From: Collinsella aerofaciens | Lineage (GTDB): Bacteria; Actinomycetota; Coriobacteriia; Coriobacteriales; Coriobacteriaceae | NCBI GenBank assembly: GCA_008671285.1 | Contig: RPYR01000133.1 | Span: 1-15,345, forward strand | Length of the DNA stretch: 15,345 nucleotides | Direction: 5' to 3' | Part shown: positions 7,188 to 14,121 of the stretch, in pieces | Layout of the letters: each line of letters opens with the position of its first letter | Position numbering within the stretch: the first letter of the stretch is position 1 | Notes under the pieces: model-generated | What the model was told of the DNA's origin: nothing | The model's database searches: none | The model's input: only the letters and a program-made list of their open reading frames with translations | Made by a program: the position numbers and the translations under genes

Positions 7188-8066
7188 GTGTACGATCGAC
7201 GACTTGAGGCCATATCGGCCGCCGCGGAGCTGGGAAGCTTCTCGCGTGCGGCGGCAAAATTGCGCGTGTCGACCCCGGCGCTCGTCAAGCAGGTGTCGGG
7301 ATTCGAGGCCGAGTTCGGCATCACGCTGTTCGAACGCTCGCACTCGGGCGTCAAGGTGACGCCGGCGGGCGCACTGCTGGTGGACGACGCGCGCTCGATC
7401 ATGCGGCAGTCCGAGGACGCGCTGCGCCGTGCCCGACGCGCGGCGGGCGATGGCGGTGCCGTGCGCCTGGGCGTGTCGATGATGTGCCCAGGGCGCCAAA
7501 CGCTGTCGATGTGGTCGGGCATCCACGATCTGGAACCGTCGCTGCGATTTGAGATCGTGCCGGTAAGCGACCTCTACGACGAACGCGAGACCGTCATGCG
7601 CAGCCTCGGTCGCGAGGTCGATGTGGTGCAGTCGAGTTTTTCGACCCCGCGCTGGGGTGACGCCTGCCAAAAGCTCCGCATCGTTAACGTGCCGTTTTAT
7701 ATCGACCTGCCGCGCACGAGCCCGCTGGCGCGCAAGAATCGCATTACGGTCGCCGACTTGGAGGGTATGCGCCTGCGCGTGCTCCGCCACGGCAACGACG
7801 CCATGGACAGCCTGCGCATCGACCTGTTGGCCGACGGCGGCGTGGACGTGATCGACGTGGACAGCTTTGACTTTGCGCTCTTTAACGAGGCAGAGGAAAA
7901 GGGCGACGCGGTGCTCACCTGCGGCGCATGGTCGGGGGTGCACCCGGCCTTTGTGGGCGTGCCGTTCCTGTGCGGCCGCGAGGTGCCAGTCTTTCTGCAC
8001 TACCCGCTCGAGCCCACCCTCCAAGTCCAAAAATTCGTCAACGCCATGGCCCAACTCCTCAAGTAG
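7188..8066 (+). CDS. LysR-family transcriptional regulator
   Basis: DNA-binding regulator, 292 aa from the preferred GTG start. The N-terminal winged helix-turn-helix covers about residues 3-60: LEAISAAAELGSFSRAAAKL leads into the recognition helix STPALVKQVSGFE and the wing LFERSHSGVKVTPAG. The remainder from about 92 (VRLGVSMM) is the periplasmic-binding-protein-like effector domain. The GTG at 7188 is chosen for the GGGAGA site and because MYDRRLEAI is the expected N-terminus; ATG 7155 would add 11 basic residues. Transcribed away from the SDR-MFS-oxidoreductase cluster, which it probably controls in response to a pathway compound. Its stop codon is the first triplet of a 56-bp repeat found again after the sortase gene. 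Confidence 0.9.
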   Translation: MYDRRLEAISAAAELGSFSRAAAKLRVSTPALVKQVSGFEAEFGITLFERSHSGVKVTPAGALLVDDARSIMRQSEDALRRARRAAGDGGAVRLGVSMMCPGRQTLSMWSGIHDLEPSLRFEIVPVSDLYDERETVMRSLGREVDVVQSSFSTPRWGDACQKLRIVNVPFYIDLPRTSPLARKNRITVADLEGMRLRVLRHGNDAMDSLRIDLLADGGVDVIDVDSFDFALFNEAEEKGDAVLTCGAWSGVHPAFVGVPFLCGREVPVFLHYPLEPTLQVQKFVNAMAQLLK

Positions 8067-8119
8067 CTCATTTAGGACGGGGCTTTTTTAGCCACTTTTG
8101 GCGTCCTACCTGCGCAATG
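8064..8119 (+). repeat. 56-bp dispersed element, copy 1 (3' end of lysR)
   Basis: Matches 14119-14174 at 50 of 56 bases without gaps. Both copies begin exactly at the TAG stop of the preceding gene (TAGCTCATTTAGGA) and end in CCTACCTGCGCAATG. Internally AGGACG (8074-8079) pairs with CGTCCT (8102-8107) and GGCT/AGCC flank a T-run, so it may act as a 3'-end hairpin or terminator for lysR. Confidence 0.7.
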
Positions 8120-8161
8120 CGGAAAATGCGAAAAATGACTGCAAATCGGTTACGCATGATT

Positions 8162-8190
8162 TTGCTTTTGCCCTGGGCTGGTTGTAGAAT
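8162..8190 (+). promoter_or_regulatory. Putative pilus operon promoter
   Basis: TTGCTT (8162-8167) and TAGAAT (8185-8190) with a 17-bp spacer. A start near 8197 would leave a leader of about 95 nt before ATG 8292. The -35 is weak (3 of 6), so an activator may be needed. No recognisable dedicated regulator gene lies in the operon. Confidence 0.5.
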
Positions 8191-8245
8191 CAAAAAACTT
8201 AAACGAACTACTTGTGCAGCTTGCGCGAAAGCTCGGGCTGCGGCT

Positions 8246-8253
8246 GGGGGGGG
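8246..8253 (+). repeat. G8 homopolymer tract in the adhesin leader
   Basis: Eight consecutive G residues, 38 bp upstream of the preferred adhesin start. If translation starts at GTG 8214 the tract is coding; if at GTG 8262 it lies where a Shine-Dalgarno sequence would. Such tracts are prone to slipped-strand length change. Confidence 0.85.
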
Positions 8254-8291
8254 ATGCGCCCGTGCGGGGTCCTTTCGGTCATATAGCGTCG

Positions 8292-11200
8292 ATGCGCCGC
8301 ACCTTTGTGATGTTGGCAGCGGTCTTATGCGCGTTCGTTATGGCCGGGGGGGGGTTGCCCTCGCGTGCGTACGGTGACGATGGCAACCTTATAGCGAACC
8401 CAACCTTTACCAACCAAGCTTCTGGTTGGTCGACGACCTCTCCGAATAAGAGAATCGGCGAGACGTTGAAGCTCGACCTCTCCACGAAGCTCCTCAACGG
8501 TCAAAGAAACCTCAAACAAGCTAACGGTAATCGTTTTGCGCTTGCGTGGAATCTTAGGCCACAGGATCAAAATCTTTATTTTGAACCTGGATCAACCTAC
8601 ACCACCTTTTCCACCCAGAGCGGCTCCACGTACGAGTGGGGCCTCAACCATCGCGCCGCAACCGAACACGACGTGCTGATGCTCACGATGGGTCCTCAAC
8701 AGGAGAATCTGTCGGTTAACAACGCAGGCCAAGACCAGCTCATGCAGCTGCGGACTTGGCTTAAGGCGCAGGGCAAGATGCCCCAGGGAAATACCGTTGA
8801 GCAGTACACCGTTTACAGCGATTCCTTTGCCGCAAATGGCGGCTTTGCTGGTAGCAGCGCTGACGGATCCCACTTTTCGTTTGAACAGAGCGACGGCCGC
8901 ATTGCGCTTTCGGTGTGGCTCGTAAGCTCTAACGGACAGGGTTGGTTCTCCTTTGGCACCAACAGCACGCATTATTATCGAGATCTTCCCGAGCAAGACG
9001 ATGAGTTTGCCTATCAGGCAGTCTATACCGCAGCGTCCGAAAAGACGATGCTTGCGCTGACTTGCTACGATTCAAATCTTACGGGTGCGAACGAACAATA
9101 CCGTGAGTGGTTTGGCAATCTGGTCAACGACGTTCATGTGGAAAAGCAGGGCACACGCGACATCTATAGTGATTTTGCCAAGGTGTATCAAGAAAATTCG
9201 TCCGAGACCATGACAACGCTCACGCGCTATGCGTTCTCGACCTCGAATCTTAAGAACGAGAATACGAACATTGCTAACGGCAGCTTTGAAGAGGATATAC
9301 ATCTAGGGAACCAGAGGCCCAGCAAGTTTACGTTGTGCTCGCCCCATTGGCGTACGACCGAGACAGACCATCGTATCGAGATCGTTGCCCAGAACGACTA
9401 CTATATCGACCCAGCTGGGCATTCTGTTACGTTTACGCCCTCCGATGGTGACTATGCAGCCGAGCTCAACGCACACGAGGCGAGTTCGCTCTACCAATAT
9501 GTGACGACCGAGCCGGGAAAACAGTACGAGTGGGGGCTCGATCACCGCGGCCGCTCGGGTCGAGACGCCATGGCCCTTATCATCGGTCCGCGACAAGAAA
9601 ACGAGCCGTACAAGGACAATCAAAAGGCACTCGATCAGTACCAGCAAATTGTTCAATGGATTCAAATGAGCGTCGATAACTATGTCGGCTTGGATGTGGC
9701 CAATTTTTCCCAATCGGGCTGCAGCAAAAAGATCATCCTGTATTCAACCAAGTTTGACAAAGTGGGCGGATTTGCCGATGCGTCCAGCGGAAGCGCGTTC
9801 TCATGGACGGCCGATGCGGAGCATACCGAAAAATGGTGCGTATGGATTATGGCGTCCGAAAACGACGCGTGGGCTTCCTACGGTTCCAACGCGCTCGAGC
9901 AGAACAAAAAGGTTGACTACGACTATACCTACACCATTCCGGATGGCCAAAACCAGAGCGTCTTTGCTTTTGTGGCCTACAACACGGCCAACGGGAGCAA
10001 TTCGATCGGCAACTTCCTCGACAATATCTCGTTTAGGGAGTTCTATCGCATCGAGACGTACACGACGCCCAACGGAAGCGGAACGTATTTTTATAACTCC
10101 GACAACGAGACAGCGGACTTTACGTATGCCAAAAACTACGTAGGGAAACAGGAAAAGAACTCCTACTTTATGGTTGACGCCAAGCGCGATGGCGGGGCAG
10201 TCTTTATCGGTGCTTTTGTCAACGGCGAGTTCTATTCCGCGGACGATAAGGCGCACTGGACCGAATTGGACGATGGCACCTATCACTTTAAGGTCGACAA
10301 GGTCACAAAGCACTACAAAGTGCACCTTGTGTTTTCTAAGGCGGGTGTTCAATACGATGTGAACGGTGGCAAAGCGTATCACTATGATCCGTCCAATGAG
10401 TCCACGGGCGATTTCGTGCAGCTTTCTGGTGCTGGAGCGAACTATACCTCCCATGCTGCCGAAGGGCAAAACGACGGTTGGAAGTTTATGGGCTGGGAGT
10501 ACGCGGGCTCGGGAAAAGCCATTCGTTTTAGCGCAGAGCACACGGTGACCCATACGGCTCCCGAGGGCACCACGGATTCCGGCACTCTTACCATTAAGGG
10601 CAAGAAGGTCGATTCGGATACCGGTGCTGCAGGCGATGAGGTAACGGTCAAAAACATTCCCGAGAGCCAAGGCGCGACGTTCGTGGCGCAATGGAAGTAT
10701 CGTCAGGCCTTTGTTGCTCAGCTTAAAAATGCCGATGGCACGTGGAGCAACGTAACGACGGGCGGTACGGTCAGCTCCAAGCTTAAGGGGGCAAAGGGCT
10801 CCATTGATGCCGGGGATCGCTCGGGCAAGGACGCCGACGCGTACAAAACTTCGGGTATCGCCTACTTTGTGGATGACGGCACGTTTGTGGAGGCGGTGGC
10901 CACTCCCAAGGAGGGCTATCACTTTGAGGGCTGGTACGACCTGTCAAATCAGGACGCCCCGGAGCTGCTGTCGTCTTCACCCACCTATACGTACAACGTA
11001 AAAGAGCGCCATACGGGATGCGTATACGCACGGTTCACCCCACGCACCTACACGCTCAAGGTTTCCAAGAGCGTTACGGGCAATATGGGCGACAAGCGTG
11101 CCTACTTTAAGATGACGGCGACCTTTACGGGCCTCAAGGCTGGTCAGACCTACGCCATCGAGTATTCGGATGCGTCTGCCCAAGGCAGCCATGCGCTCGT

Positions 11201-11597
11201 GGCGCGACCGAATGATCGGGCCGAGACCGTGGAAAACAAGACGGCCTTTACGGCCGATGGCCAGGGCAAGGCGACCATGCCGTTTGCCGTTAAGGACGGC
11301 CTGACCGTTTCGATTAAGGCGCTGGATTACAACGCGGTCTATACCGTGAGCGAAGACGATTATTCTTCGTTGGGGTATCAGGCTAAGCTTACGGGTGCGA
11401 GCGGCACGCTCAACGGTCCGCGTGTGACCGTTGCCGTTGAAGCTAAGGCCACCAATTCCCGACAGGTCGCGGTGCCTACGGGTATTACGCGCAACCCCAT
11501 CTATGCCCTGGCGATTTTGGCCGCCGGCGTGCTGTTGGCTACGGGTATGGTTGCGCTGCGTTTACACCGCGGCTCCAAGAGGGGTGGGCGCCTATGA
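8292..11597 (+). CDS. Large secreted adhesin-like pilus protein with VPTG sorting signal
   Basis: Predicted cell-wall or pilus-tip protein, 1101 aa. Signal peptide 1-28 (MRR, hydrophobic core, SRAYG). Two tandem copies of a module of about 260 residues follow (about 31-287 and 326-588), sharing YEWGLNHR/YEWGLDHR, a following GPQQEN/GPRQEN, and ends rich in aromatic beta strands; they look like jelly-roll ligand-binding folds but I do not recognise the family. Residues about 680-915 contain InlB B-repeat-like patterns (FMGWEY, FEGWYD). About 918-1058 is a Spy0128-like domain with an isopeptide triad K926, E1021, N1055. Then VPTG (1061-1064), a hydrophobic segment and a basic tail. The start is uncertain: ATG 8292 lacks a clear ribosome site; in-frame GTGs lie at 8214 and 8262. 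Base composition is more AT-rich than the metabolic genes. Position matches cpa of streptococcal FCT loci. Confidence 0.88.
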   Translation: MRRTFVMLAAVLCAFVMAGGGLPSRAYGDDGNLIANPTFTNQASGWSTTSPNKRIGETLKLDLSTKLLNGQRNLKQANGNRFALAWNLRPQDQNLYFEPGSTYTTFSTQSGSTYEWGLNHRAATEHDVLMLTMGPQQENLSVNNAGQDQLMQLRTWLKAQGKMPQGNTVEQYTVYSDSFAANGGFAGSSADGSHFSFEQSDGRIALSVWLVSSNGQGWFSFGTNSTHYYRDLPEQDDEFAYQAVYTAASEKTMLALTCYDSNLTGANEQYREWFGNLVNDVHVEKQGTRDIYSDFAKVYQENSSETMTTLTRYAFSTSNLKNENTNIANGSFEEDIHLGNQRPSKFTLCSPHWRTTETDHRIEIVAQNDYYIDPAGHSVTFTPSDGDYAAELNAHEASSLYQYVTTEPGKQYEWGLDHRGRSGRDAMALIIGPRQENEPYKDNQKALDQYQQIVQWIQMSVDNYVGLDVANFSQSGCSKKIILYSTKFDKVGGFADASSGSAFSWTADAEHTEKWCVWIMASENDAWASYGSNALEQNKKVDYDYTYTIPDGQNQSVFAFVAYNTANGSNSIGNFLDNISFREFYRIETYTTPNGSGTYFYNSDNETADFTYAKNYVGKQEKNSYFMVDAKRDGGAVFIGAFVNGEFYSADDKAHWTELDDGTYHFKVDKVTKHYKVHLVFSKAGVQYDVNGGKAYHYDPSNESTGDFVQLSGAGANYTSHAAEGQNDGWKFMGWEYAGSGKAIRFSAEHTVTHTAPEGTTDSGTLTIKGKKVDSDTGAAGDEVTVKNIPESQGATFVAQWKYRQAFVAQLKNADGTWSNVTTGGTVSSKLKGAKGSIDAGDRSGKDADAYKTSGIAYFVDDGTFVEAVATPKEGYHFEGWYDLSNQDAPELLSSSPTYTYNVKERHTGCVYARFTPRTYTLKVSKSVTGNMGDKRAYFKMTATFTGLKAGQTYAIEYSDASAQGSHALVARPNDRAETVENKTAFTADGQGKATMPFAVKDGLTVSIKALDYNAVYTVSEDDYSSLGYQAKLTGASGTLNGPRVTVAVEAKATNSRQVAVPTGITRNPIYALAILAAGVLLATGMVALRLHRGSKRGGRL
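8346..8354 (+). repeat. G9 homopolymer tract inside the adhesin signal peptide
   Basis: Nine consecutive G residues encode Gly-Gly-Gly at residues 19-21, just after the hydrophobic core. Gain or loss of one G would frameshift the protein almost at once. The current length is in frame (ON). All three codons are GGG, as needed for a pure tract. Confidence 0.9.
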
Positions 11598-12226
11598 GAA
11601 GACATGGCGCCAGCAATGCTGGTGATGGGCCAGCCGCACGAGCGGCCCCGCAGGGAAGACCCCGGGGCTCGCGGTATTCGGCCACGTCGAACGTGAGGTT
11701 GGGCGCCCATGCGGCACCAGATCTGGGAGAAGCGGACGACCGGCGCGATATCGTGGGCTTTCTGGCGCGCCTGGCATTTTTTGTCGTGACGCTCTGGCTG
11801 CTCTTTGGTGTGGTCTTGGGCGTGGGCGCAGTCACGACTGGCGAGATGACCCCCCGCATCTGTTCGGGTGACGTCATGCTCTACTGGAGGCTCAGCCAGA
11901 GCTTTAACGAGGGTGACGTGGTGGTATACACCGCGGATGGCGAAGAGCGCCTGGGTCGCGTGGTTGCCCGCCCCGGTGATGAGGTCACAATTACCGAGTC
12001 GGGCGAGCTCATGGTTAACGGGGCTGTTGTGGTGGAAAGCGATATCACCACGCCGACGCCGCGCTATGAGTCTGCTGTGGACTATCCCGTGCATCTGGGA
12101 ACGGATGAGCTCTTTGTGCTGGCAGATTTGCGCGAGGGCGGGCACGACAGTCGCCTGTATGGACCGATTGCCCGTTCGCAGATCAAAGGCAATGTGATCA
12201 GCGTGCTGCGCAGGTCGAACCTGTAG
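11594..12226 (+). CDS. SipA-like pseudo-signal peptidase (pilus assembly factor)
   Basis: Signal peptidase I fold, 210 aa. A long basic N-terminus precedes one membrane segment (about 54-80), then the extracytoplasmic domain. Box B, normally SGSMxP, reads TGEMTP (82-87), so the nucleophilic Ser position is Glu84. In box D, normally KRVxGxPGD, the sequence is GRVVARPGD (121-129), so the general-base Lys is Gly121. Box E is kept as FVLADLREGGHDSRLYG (174-190). The two positions are 37 residues apart, the same as Asp48 and Gly85 of the inactive S. pyogenes SipA, which is needed for pilus polymerisation. Its ATG overlaps the adhesin TGA (ATGA), so translation is probably coupled. A true peptidase is unlikely; a scaffold or chaperone for pilin and sortase is favoured. 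Confidence 0.9.
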   Translation: MRRHGASNAGDGPAARAAPQGRPRGSRYSATSNVRLGAHAAPDLGEADDRRDIVGFLARLAFFVVTLWLLFGVVLGVGAVTTGEMTPRICSGDVMLYWRLSQSFNEGDVVVYTADGEERLGRVVARPGDEVTITESGELMVNGAVVVESDITTPTPRYESAVDYPVHLGTDELFVLADLREGGHDSRLYGPIARSQIKGNVISVLRRSNL

Positions 12227-12277: not shown

Positions 12278-13366
12278 ATGAAAACTGGAAAGAGGCGACT
12301 GGCTGCATTTGCGGTTGTGGCGGCCACGATGGTGCTGGCTTTGGTGGGGGTTGCTGCGCCCGCGTGGGCGGAGGGGCAATCCACTAATCCGCAGTTGTCG
12401 GTAACTGAAGGGAGGGTCACGATCACCTCGAAGCTCACCATGGATAAGTACGCCGTGGAGCCGAATGCGGACTTTAAATATACGATTGCGCCGGCGGAGG
12501 CGAGCGAGCTTACGAACACGGGTATGCCCGCTACTGCTGGAGTGGAAGGGGCCGTTTCGCTTTCGCCGTCTTCCGTAAATTATTCTGCCGAAGGTCTTTC
12601 TAGCGAAGATAATGCCGACGGCGTTACTAAGACAATAACCGCCCAAATGAGCGTCAGCCTTGTTACCTCAAGGTTCGCGGCTCCGGGCATCTATCGATAC
12701 AAAATTACGCAGACGCCGCCAGAGCTGGATGGCCTCAACGTTGTGTACAAGGAACTGTTCCTGGATGTTTACGTAGAAAATGGCAACTCAGGTTTAGTTG
12801 CTAAGGGCTGCACTCTTAGCACGGCGGCGGGATCGGGCAGCAAGATCTCAGGCTTTGAGAACAAATATGTCACCCATAAGCTGACCATCACAAAGGTCGT
12901 AGCCGGTAACCAGGGCGATAAAAATAAGGACTTTGAGTTTACCGTCACGATTAAAGGCGCTGACGGGGAGACTTATAAGTACGGCACTGTGAAAAACGGT
13001 GTTACTACCATGAACCAAACTACAACCAAGTCGGGAGCTACGTTTACCGAGACGCTTAAGCATGGGGAATCCGTCATCGTTTACGGTCTCTCATCGGAGG
13101 ATAAATTCGCCGTAACTGAGGCGGATTATCATGGCGACGGTTATAAGACGTCGTACAAGATTGGTGATGGCACCAATTCGACAGAAGGTAGCTCTATTGC
13201 CGAGAAAGCTATCGGTAATTCCGACACCACGGTGATCTTTACCAACACCAAGGATGTTACCGTTCCGACCGATGTTATTCGGACGGTCGTTCCCTATGCG
13301 GCAATCGTCGCGTTTGCTGCCGTGATGGGCGTGGTCTTCTTCCGTCCTCGCCGTAACCGCCGTTAA
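12278..13366 (+). CDS. Spy0128/FctA-like major pilin, VPTD sorting signal
   Basis: Predicted pilus backbone, 362 aa. Signal peptide 1-31 (AWA cleavage), two Ig-like Spy0128-type domains (about 40-195 and 198-326), sorting signal VPTD (329-332), hydrophobic segment and RPRRNRR tail. The second domain shows the isopeptide set K206 (LTITK), E281 (VTEADY) and N323 (FTNTK). The first has N195 (GFEN) and candidate K52, but the expected Glu in KITE is Gln145. N195 to K206 is 11 residues, as from Asn168 to Lys179 in Spy0128. K189 in GSK just before the domain boundary aligns with Lys161, the residue joining Spy0128 subunits. ATG 12278 is preceded by AGGAAGG 7 nt upstream, the best ribosome site of the operon. 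The sorting motif ends in Asp where streptococcal FctA has Gly. Confidence 0.92.
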   Translation: MKTGKRRLAAFAVVAATMVLALVGVAAPAWAEGQSTNPQLSVTEGRVTITSKLTMDKYAVEPNADFKYTIAPAEASELTNTGMPATAGVEGAVSLSPSSVNYSAEGLSSEDNADGVTKTITAQMSVSLVTSRFAAPGIYRYKITQTPPELDGLNVVYKELFLDVYVENGNSGLVAKGCTLSTAAGSGSKISGFENKYVTHKLTITKVVAGNQGDKNKDFEFTVTIKGADGETYKYGTVKNGVTTMNQTTTKSGATFTETLKHGESVIVYGLSSEDKFAVTEADYHGDGYKTSYKIGDGTNSTEGSSIAEKAIGNSDTTVIFTNTKDVTVPTDVIRTVVPYAAIVAFAAVMGVVFFRPRRNRR

Positions 13367-13386: not shown

Positions 13387-14121
13387 ATGGAGCTTAAACG
13401 CATAGCTCGGCTGGCGAGAGCCGGCGACCGCGTACTTACGTGGTTTGCCGGCTTTCTCGTGCTGCTCATGCTGCTGTACGGGGGCTATTCGCTGTGGGAT
13501 ACAAACAACGTTATGAACGGCGGGTTCATCAGCGATGAGCTGCTGCACTACAAACCCACCGGGGCCAACGATTGCGCACGCCTGCAGGATCTGATGGCCA
13601 AAAATCCCGATGTGGTCGGATGGGTTACCATCGATGGCACCAACATCGACTATCCCTTTGTTCAGGGAAAAGATAACCAGGAATACCTCAACAAAAACGT
13701 TTTGGGAGAATCCGCGGTCTCGGGAGCGGTGTTTTTGGATGCGCGCAACAGCCGCACGATGACCGATTCCTACAATCTGCTCTATGCGCACCACATGGAT
13801 AACGGCGCGATGTTTGGCGATGTCGACCGGTTTTTAGACAGGGGCTTCTTTGACCTGCACCGCACGGGCACGCTCTACACGAAGGATGGGGCGTTCCGCC
13901 TGCGCATTGTTGCCGTGTGCTCGTTTGCTGCGAGTGATGACATTATCTTTGGGCCGGGAAACCTGGACCAGGCCTCGATGCAGACGCTGCTCACGCATGT
14001 CTCGCAGACGGCGGTGCACGAGAACATGGATGACGTTGGCCCCGATGCACGCATCATCGCGCTTTCTACCTGCAGCGATAAAACAAATGGGCGCCGAGCG
14101 CTCCTAGCCGAAATCTTGTAG
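13387..14121 (+). CDS. Class B sortase (pilin polymerase, SrtC-like)
   Basis: Membrane-anchored transpeptidase, 244 aa. A short basic N-terminus and one membrane helix (about 17-37) are followed by the class B fold: NPDVVGWVTIDGTNIDYP (73-90), the catalytic His in LLYAHHM (H135, AHH), the cysteine in LSTC (C229) and Arg in NGRR (236/237). It starts 20 bp after the pilin stop, with GAGG about 10 nt upstream of the ATG. It probably cuts the pilin VPTD and adhesin VPTG motifs between positions 4 and 5 and joins subunits through a lysine, as SrtC of S. pyogenes FCT loci does. No housekeeping class A sortase is in the window. The TAG stop begins a 56-bp element shared with the lysR end. Confidence 0.93.
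   Translation: MELKRIARLARAGDRVLTWFAGFLVLLMLLYGGYSLWDTNNVMNGGFISDELLHYKPTGANDCARLQDLMAKNPDVVGWVTIDGTNIDYPFVQGKDNQEYLNKNVLGESAVSGAVFLDARNSRTMTDSYNLLYAHHMDNGAMFGDVDRFLDRGFFDLHRTGTLYTKDGAFRLRIVAVCSFAASDDIIFGPGNLDQASMQTLLTHVSQTAVHENMDDVGPDARIIALSTCSDKTNGRRALLAEIL

What the first reader, a model, noticed from the sequence alone, without database searches (positions are those of the whole stretch)
8246..8354. Two poly-G tracts (G8, G9) at the 5' end of the adhesin: candidate phase-variation switch
G8 at 8246-8253 lies in the leader and G9 at 8346-8354 lies in the signal-peptide codons, 110 bp from end to end. A single-base change in G9 would truncate the adhesin shortly after the signal peptide. 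Homopolymer-G slippage controls surface proteins in many bacteria, including sortase-pilus genes of bifidobacteria. The G8 tract could instead change translation or transcription, or act together with G9 if translation starts upstream. Because the next gene is coupled by ATGA, frameshifting could also lower SipA-like protein and downstream expression.
Basis: partly seen in the sequence, partly recalled or inferred. Interest (0 to 1): 0.82.

Follow-up and report, generated by a model that had tools for sequence, protein, structure and literature searches.

The report
Poly-G switch on Collinsella pilus adhesin
A run of nine Gs inside the secretion signal of a gut bacterium's pilus protein looks like a slippery on/off switch: close relatives carry ten Gs there, which cuts the protein off after 28 amino acids, while the rest of the gene stays intact.

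Summary
In detail: G8 at 8246-8253 and G9 at 8346-8354 are the window's only homopolymers of 7 or more. The genus is Collinsella. The gene is first in an adhesin/SipA-like/Spy0128-like pilin/class B sortase operon. Five sequences carry it (window plus 4 of 43 genus genomes). Tract 2 is G9, in frame, in two and G10, truncating at 28 aa, in three; all five keep 1080 intact codons after the tract. Truncated alleles lie on two branches, each beside an in-frame allele, and still show purifying selection (dN/dS 0.23), as a reversible frameshift switch predicts. Two other secreted-protein genes in the genus share the layout: G9 in 15 of 20 tract-bearing alleles, G8 or G10, truncating, in 5. Tract 1 is more likely a Shine-Dalgarno run than a second frame switch (8 nt before GTG 8262, -10.3 kcal/mol). 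Slippage within one culture was not tested. Closest known: the Bifidobacterium breve pilus G-tract switch (PMC9187656). New member of a known kind, in another class and pilus type.

The parts
8246..8253 (+). Tract 1: G8 in the leader; likely the Shine-Dalgarno run for GTG 8262 (8-nt spacer)
   Evidence: anti-SD duplex -10.3 kcal/mol; G7 or G8 in relatives
8262..8264 (+). Proposed start codon GTG, conserved in 5 of 5
   Evidence: the predicted protein P0001 begins at the corresponding codon (my reading)
8292..8294 (+). In-frame ATG, alternative start with a poor ribosome-binding site (-2.9 kcal/mol)
8292..8375 (+). Signal-peptide region MRRTFVMLAAVLCAFVMAGGGLPSRAYG (judged by eye, no predictor run)
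8346..8354 (+). Tract 2: G9 in the signal-peptide codons; the frameshift switch
   Evidence: G9 in frame in 2 of 5, G10 truncated in 3 of 5
8375..8377 (+). Out-of-frame TGA met by the G10 alleles after 28 codons (window coordinates)
8262..11597 (+). Putative pilus ancillary/tip adhesin, in frame in this window; DUF7601 near the C terminus; VPTGI-like sorting signal (by eye)
   Evidence: weak fold hints
11594..12226 (+). SipA-like protein of signal-peptidase fold; start overlaps the adhesin stop (ATGA); Glu and Gly where signal peptidases have Ser and Lys (my reading of the alignment)
12278..13366 (+). Major pilin, FctA/DUF7601, related to S. pyogenes T18.1 and Spy0128
13387..14121 (+). Class B sortase, likely the pilus polymerase

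Best explanation
Tract 2 (G9, 8346-8354) is a slipped-strand phase-variation switch in the signal-peptide codons of the first gene of a sortase-B pilus operon. With 9 Gs the 1101-1111 aa adhesin is made, secreted and anchored. A one-base gain (G10) stops translation after 28 codons from ATG 8292, so no adhesin is secreted. The change is reversible, so the downstream reading frame stays under selection. Shown here: the tract lengths, the frames, the intact downstream frame, the purifying selection, in-frame and truncated alleles interleaved on the tree, and the same layout in two other secreted-protein genes. Inferred: replication slippage as the cause, reversibility within a lineage, and the effect on pili. 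Tract 1 (G8) most likely serves as the Shine-Dalgarno sequence of GTG 8262, so its slippage would tune translation rather than frame (about 50%).
For: G9 in window and G001, G10 in G008, G024 and G062; the G10 alleles stop at 28 aa while 5 of 5 keep 1080 post-tract codons with no gap. P0001, a database protein read in frame through the site, has the Val that the G10 alleles have before the tract and matches OFF allele G008 at 1060 of 1080 residues. OFF alleles sit on two branches of the tree, each beside an ON allele (local support 0.97-1.0). OFF alleles G008 and G062 differ by 150 nt with dN/dS 0.23; random placement of the same changes gives 4.3 stops and 105 amino-acid changes on average, against 0 (P 0.011) and 62 (lowest of 2000 runs: 89) observed. 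Tract 1 differs (G7, G8) between G008 and G024, whose post-tract codons differ at one site. In an FctA-domain and a CAP-domain protein a G9 follows the signal peptide in 7 of 10 and 8 of 10 tract-bearing genomes; the other 5 are G8 or G10 and truncate. Seven homologues without the long tract stay in frame as far as their loci reach.
Against: Only five adhesin DNA sequences are held, all but the window from species representatives, so no read-level or same-isolate variation was seen. G008 and G024 are 99.45% identical over 15.6 kb and count as one lineage for tract 2. All three G10 alleles share the GTC codon before the tract while both G9 DNA sequences have GCC, so one G10 event spread by recombination of the 5' end is possible; P0001 speaks against a strict link, but only its protein was seen. 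Assembly error cannot be excluded for each genome; G008 has an odd poly-G stretch elsewhere. Two tract-less FctA-type homologues (G003, G011) also stop, at codon 62, in a different architecture. Composition alone does not make a G9 improbable. Divergence between OFF alleles includes time spent ON, so the selection test does not date the OFF state.
Confidence: 0.85

Rival explanations
1. Tip-only toggle (a variant of the best explanation): OFF removes the adhesin but SipA, pilin and sortase are still made, giving pili without tips, rather than shutting the whole operon by polarity.
For: The SipA-like gene and the pilin gene have their own strong Shine-Dalgarno matches (-11.8 and -11.0). In the S. 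suis srtF cluster an early nonsense mutation in the ancillary pilin gene still leaves pili of the major subunit (PMC2797073, abstract and results section 5 read).
Against: In B. breve transcription drops strongly after the stop codon before the out-of-frame gene body (PMC9187656, section 15); here about 3.2 kb would be untranslated and the next gene is ATGA-coupled. In the S. suis cluster the signal-peptidase gene is listed ahead of the ancillary gene, unlike here.
Confidence: 0.35
2. Tract 1 is a second frame switch because translation starts upstream at GTG 8214, so that both tracts must be in register.
For: The frame is open from GTG 8214 through both tracts in window and G001, giving 1127 aa.
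Against: GTG 8214 has no ribosome-binding match (+0.1 kcal/mol). In G008 and G024 leader indels break that frame, and in G024 the change at tract 1 does not compensate G10: the read from GTG 8214 stops at 31 aa. The predicted protein P0001 begins at the codon matching GTG 8262.
Confidence: 0.1
3. The G10 alleles are ordinary loss-of-function mutations on the way to decay.
For: All are static assemblies; G008 and G024 are one lineage (99.45% over 15.6 kb); the shared GTC codon allows a single G10 origin.
Against: No second lesion in 1080 codons, dN/dS 0.23 between OFF alleles, ON alleles placed among OFF ones, and one-base variants at two other loci.
Confidence: 0.08
4. The length differences are sequencing or assembly errors at homopolymers.
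Against: L015 (same place as G062) is titled as a SPAdes-style contig with coverage 54.5 and reads G10. In-frame tract-bearing alleles are exactly 9 at three loci, and the others differ by one base.
Confidence: 0.06

Closest known systems
Bifidobacterium breve UCC2003 bbr_0113 and bbr_1889 pilus G-tract switches (Penno et al. 2022, PMC9187656; abstract, sections 12 and 15 and found passages read)
   Same: Intragenic G-tract between the Sec signal and the body of the first gene of a sortase pilus operon; tract length sets the frame; polarity on downstream genes proposed. Tract lengths 8-13 in their Table 1.
   Different: Collinsella is in class Coriobacteriia, Bifidobacterium in Actinomycetes. 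The operon here has a SipA-like protein, a Spy0128-like pilin and a class B sortase, and a leader G8 that is probably the ribosome-binding run. Slippage was measured there, not here.
Streptococcus pyogenes FCT pilus and PI-2 pilus of pneumococci and oral streptococci (Cpa or PitA, SipA, FctA or PitB, class B-type sortase; organisation recalled)
   Same: Same gene kinds: pilin matches T18.1 (E 5.8e-32), SipA-like protein matches 4n31 (E 1e-24), sortase is class B. Weak Foldseek matches of a low-confidence adhesin model include PitA.
   Different: No poly-G switch is known to me there (recalled, not searched). The adhesin has no sequence match in the PDB at E 0.1.
Streptococcus suis srtF pilus with nonsense-mutated ancillary pilin (PMC2797073; abstract and section 5 read)
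   Same: Early stop in the putative adhesin gene of a pilus cluster with the other genes working.
   Different: A nonsense mutation, not a slippable tract; class C sortase; different gene order.

Membership tests
Homopolymer (SSR) phase-variable gene | Slippable tract inside the coding region near the 5' end | tested here: met
   G9 in codons 19-21 from ATG 8292
Homopolymer (SSR) phase-variable gene | Tract length differs between relatives by non-multiples of three, with the gene otherwise intact | tested here: met
   G9 in 2 of 5, G10 in 3 of 5; 1080 post-tract codons intact in 5 of 5
Homopolymer (SSR) phase-variable gene | Reversible switching within one clonal population | not testable with these tools
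   No reads available; only indirect support
Bifidobacterial-type pilus G-tract switch | Tract between Sec signal and body of the first gene of a sortase pilus operon | tested here: met
   the tract lies in the last part of the signal peptide, judged by eye
Bifidobacterial-type pilus G-tract switch | Pili appear when the tract is in frame | not testable with these tools
   needs microscopy
FCT/PI-2 class pilus operon | Spy0128-like shaft pilin with adjacent class B sortase and SipA-like gene | tested here: met
FCT/PI-2 class pilus operon | SipA lacks the Ser-Lys dyad | tested here: met
   Alignments to 4n31 and 4nv4 put Glu and Gly at the two positions (my reading); GAS SipA has Asp48 and Gly85 (PMC4049620 passages)
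FCT/PI-2 class pilus operon | First gene is a Cpa- or PitA-type tip adhesin | tested here: inconclusive
   No PDB sequence match; weak Foldseek matches to PitA, among others, from a model of mean pLDDT 55

The most novel reading that the evidence does not exclude
A two-layer switch: G9 toggles the tip adhesin on or off through the frame, while the G8 just upstream is the Shine-Dalgarno sequence and slips to tune how much is made. OFF cells may still build pili without tips. The same genus carries further independent G9 switches on secreted proteins, so a Collinsella population would hold many surface states at once.
Probability: 0.3. Interest if true: 0.75.

Novelty: new member of a known kind. 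Interest (0 to 1): 0.6.

Why it matters
Collinsella is a common human gut genus (recalled). My searches of the open-licence library found no report of slippage phase variation in it. If correct, its pilus and other surface proteins switch at random, which could help explain strain-to-strain differences in adhesion and immune recognition and would make single reference genomes misleading: the same strain may be annotated with an intact gene or a broken one depending on one G. It also suggests that the G-tract pilus switch measured in bifidobacteria has a counterpart in another actinobacterial class, on a different kind of pilus.

Tried and rejected
Leader RNA structure: both tracts can pair with the CCUUUCGGUC segment between them, but the leader folds no better than shuffles (z 0.11, 109 of 200 shuffles at least as good), so a structural switch was dropped. 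Rfam gave no match in the window. A consensus promoter scan found none in 8000-8400, so the promoter is unassigned. An IMG/VR pattern scan for more alleles found none. The adhesin fold is unresolved: mean pLDDT 55 from 18 sequences; the 8 Foldseek matches at E 0.001 or better include PitA chains but also unrelated proteins. The exopolysaccharide-leader G-tracts were only partly read: the flank search failed for 20 of 30 loci tried; of the 10 read, 3 have G9 (one by a poor flank match) and 7 have G5.

Rows set aside: the weak matches (for example G048, G013) and L016 are not orthologues and were not counted. G062 and L015 are counted once (same contig place, identical leader); 34 of 42 genomes matched, but only 12 strongly; the other 22 gave short low-scoring matches and were not counted. 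Of the 12, 10 carry the tract, G011 has none and stays in frame, and G024 is interrupted beside it; of 19 matching genomes, 10 carry a tract of 8 or more, 6 have none and stay in frame as far as the locus reaches, 2 stop at codon 62, 1 is cut by its contig end. For the fold, 18 of 21 protein rows at hand (window, P0001-P0020) were aligned. The weak Shine-Dalgarno match of ATG 8292 is not decisive: of 8 other gene starts in the window, 3 score -4.1 or weaker.

Full report
What is in the sequence. G8 lies at 8246-8253 and G9 at 8346-8354, the only homopolymers of 7 or more in the window. The G9 encodes Gly-Gly-Gly in the signal peptide of an ORF open from GTG 8214 (also GTG 8262 and ATG 8292) to 11597. 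Pfam finds DUF7601 near its C terminus. Its stop overlaps the start of a SipA-like gene as ATGA, followed by a Spy0128-like pilin and a class B sortase. One genome with the locus is recorded as Collinsella aerofaciens and the nearest held genome is in the same genus, which places the window in Collinsella; its own assembly is not held.

Is it chance? Composition alone would allow such runs (0.70 runs of 8 or more expected in the window). But the nearest held genome, G001, has only 13 distinct runs of 8 or more in about 2.5 Mb, far fewer than that model scaled up. By my reading, 6 of the 13 lie at the 5' end or leader of secreted-protein or polysaccharide genes (two here, FctA-type, CAP-type, two exopolysaccharide leaders); two more precede ORFs that may be surface proteins.

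Variation between genomes. The 5' region was found in 4 of 43 genus genomes; with the window that is five sequences. Tract 1/tract 2 lengths are: window G8/G9, G001 G8/G9, G008 G7/G10, G024 G8/G10, G062 G8/G10. In G008 and G024 the A after tract 1 is also missing. From ATG 8292 the G9 alleles give 1101 aa, the G10 alleles 28 aa; all five keep 1080 codons after the tract with no gap. The SipA-like, sortase and LysR genes align without stops in 5 of 5; the pilin also has no stop in its best alignment, which covers residues 1-355 of 362 in G008, G024 and G062 but only 1-250 in G001.

Why reversible. A database protein, P0001, runs in frame through the site, has the Val coded before the tract in the G10 alleles, and matches OFF allele G008 at 1060 of 1080 residues; its DNA was not seen. 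On the tree the OFF alleles sit on two branches, each beside an ON allele, with local support 0.97-1.0. Barring recombination of the 5' end, at least two length changes occurred. Against full independence, all three G10 alleles share GTC before the tract where both G9 DNA sequences have GCC. Two OFF alleles, G008 and G062, differ by 150 nt with dN/dS 0.23. Random placement of the same changes gives 4.3 stops and 105 amino-acid changes on average; 0 and 62 are seen. The gene has been kept in working order for most of that time.

The same design elsewhere in the genus. In G001 an FctA-domain protein and a CAP-domain protein each carry an in-frame G9 just after the signal peptide. Among tract-bearing genomes the FctA-type gene is G9 in 7 of 10, G8 in 2 and G10 in 1; the CAP-type gene is G9 in 8 of 10 and G10 in 2. 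The five G8 or G10 alleles truncate at 61-68 aa while a long frame stays open after the tract as far as each locus reaches. Seven homologues without the long tract stay in frame and two stop at codon 62. Over the three genes, 17 of 25 tract-bearing alleles are in frame, each with exactly 9 Gs, and 8 of 25 are off by one base.

Tract 1. Both genomes examined have the CCTCC anti-Shine-Dalgarno in 5 places, taken to be the 16S rRNA 3' ends. The G8 run pairs with it at -10.3 kcal/mol, 8 nt before GTG 8262; ATG 8292 scores -2.9 and GTG 8214 +0.1. Of 2000 random 22-mers of the window 1.6% score as well. GTG 8262 is conserved in 5 of 5 with a spacer of 7 or 8 nt, and P0001 begins at the matching codon. 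So tract 1 probably sets translation strength or spacing. This is inferred from sequence; some other gene starts in the window also have weak matches, so ATG 8292 stays possible.

What OFF does. In B. breve, transcription falls off after the stop at the tract (PMC9187656: abstract, sections 12 and 15 and found passages read). In S. suis, an early stop in the ancillary gene still leaves pili of the major subunit (PMC2797073: abstract and section 5 read). Both outcomes remain possible here.

Literature. No paper in the library held Collinsella with phase variation and homopolymer or with slipped-strand mispairing. Two held it with phase variation and pili and two with phase-variable; by titles and abstract starts they are off topic, and I did not read them. 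One paper on Eggerthella lenta prophages holds Coriobacteri-, phase variation and tandem repeat (listing only). Subscription papers are mostly not covered.

Noticed in passing
L047:2491, L048:2496, L058:2548: G9, G8 and G11 runs sit in the leader region ahead of exopolysaccharide genes; L047 and L048 have a Bac_transf priming glycosyltransferase next, and in L048 a NusG-like gene precedes it. Seven of 10 loci read have only G5 there.
   Followed up: partly
L050 (reverse complement), tracts at 2556 and 6429: Two similar starts (MNAAEIPF..., MHAAAIDL...) followed by G11 and G10, before ORFs with a sub-threshold DUF285 match and a clear DUF6273 match; possibly further switches.
   Followed up: no
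L057 near the G9 tract (reverse complement 2455): In G024 the CAP-domain surface gene is interrupted right after its G9 tract by about 1.5 kb holding a transposase-like ORF (named by eye, not searched).
   Followed up: partly
G008:C6:692176-692320: A chaotic stretch of very long poly-G and poly-C runs, probably an assembly artefact.
   Followed up: no
window 12278-13366: The major pilin is more divergent between relatives (about 71-91% identity) than its neighbours SipA-like and sortase (about 96-99%), suggesting diversifying selection or exchange.
   Followed up: partly
L086, L087: In G003 and G011 the FctA-type signal peptide ends in a 62-aa stub (G4) and another start-like sequence follows at once; may be a replaced cassette.
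   Followed up: no
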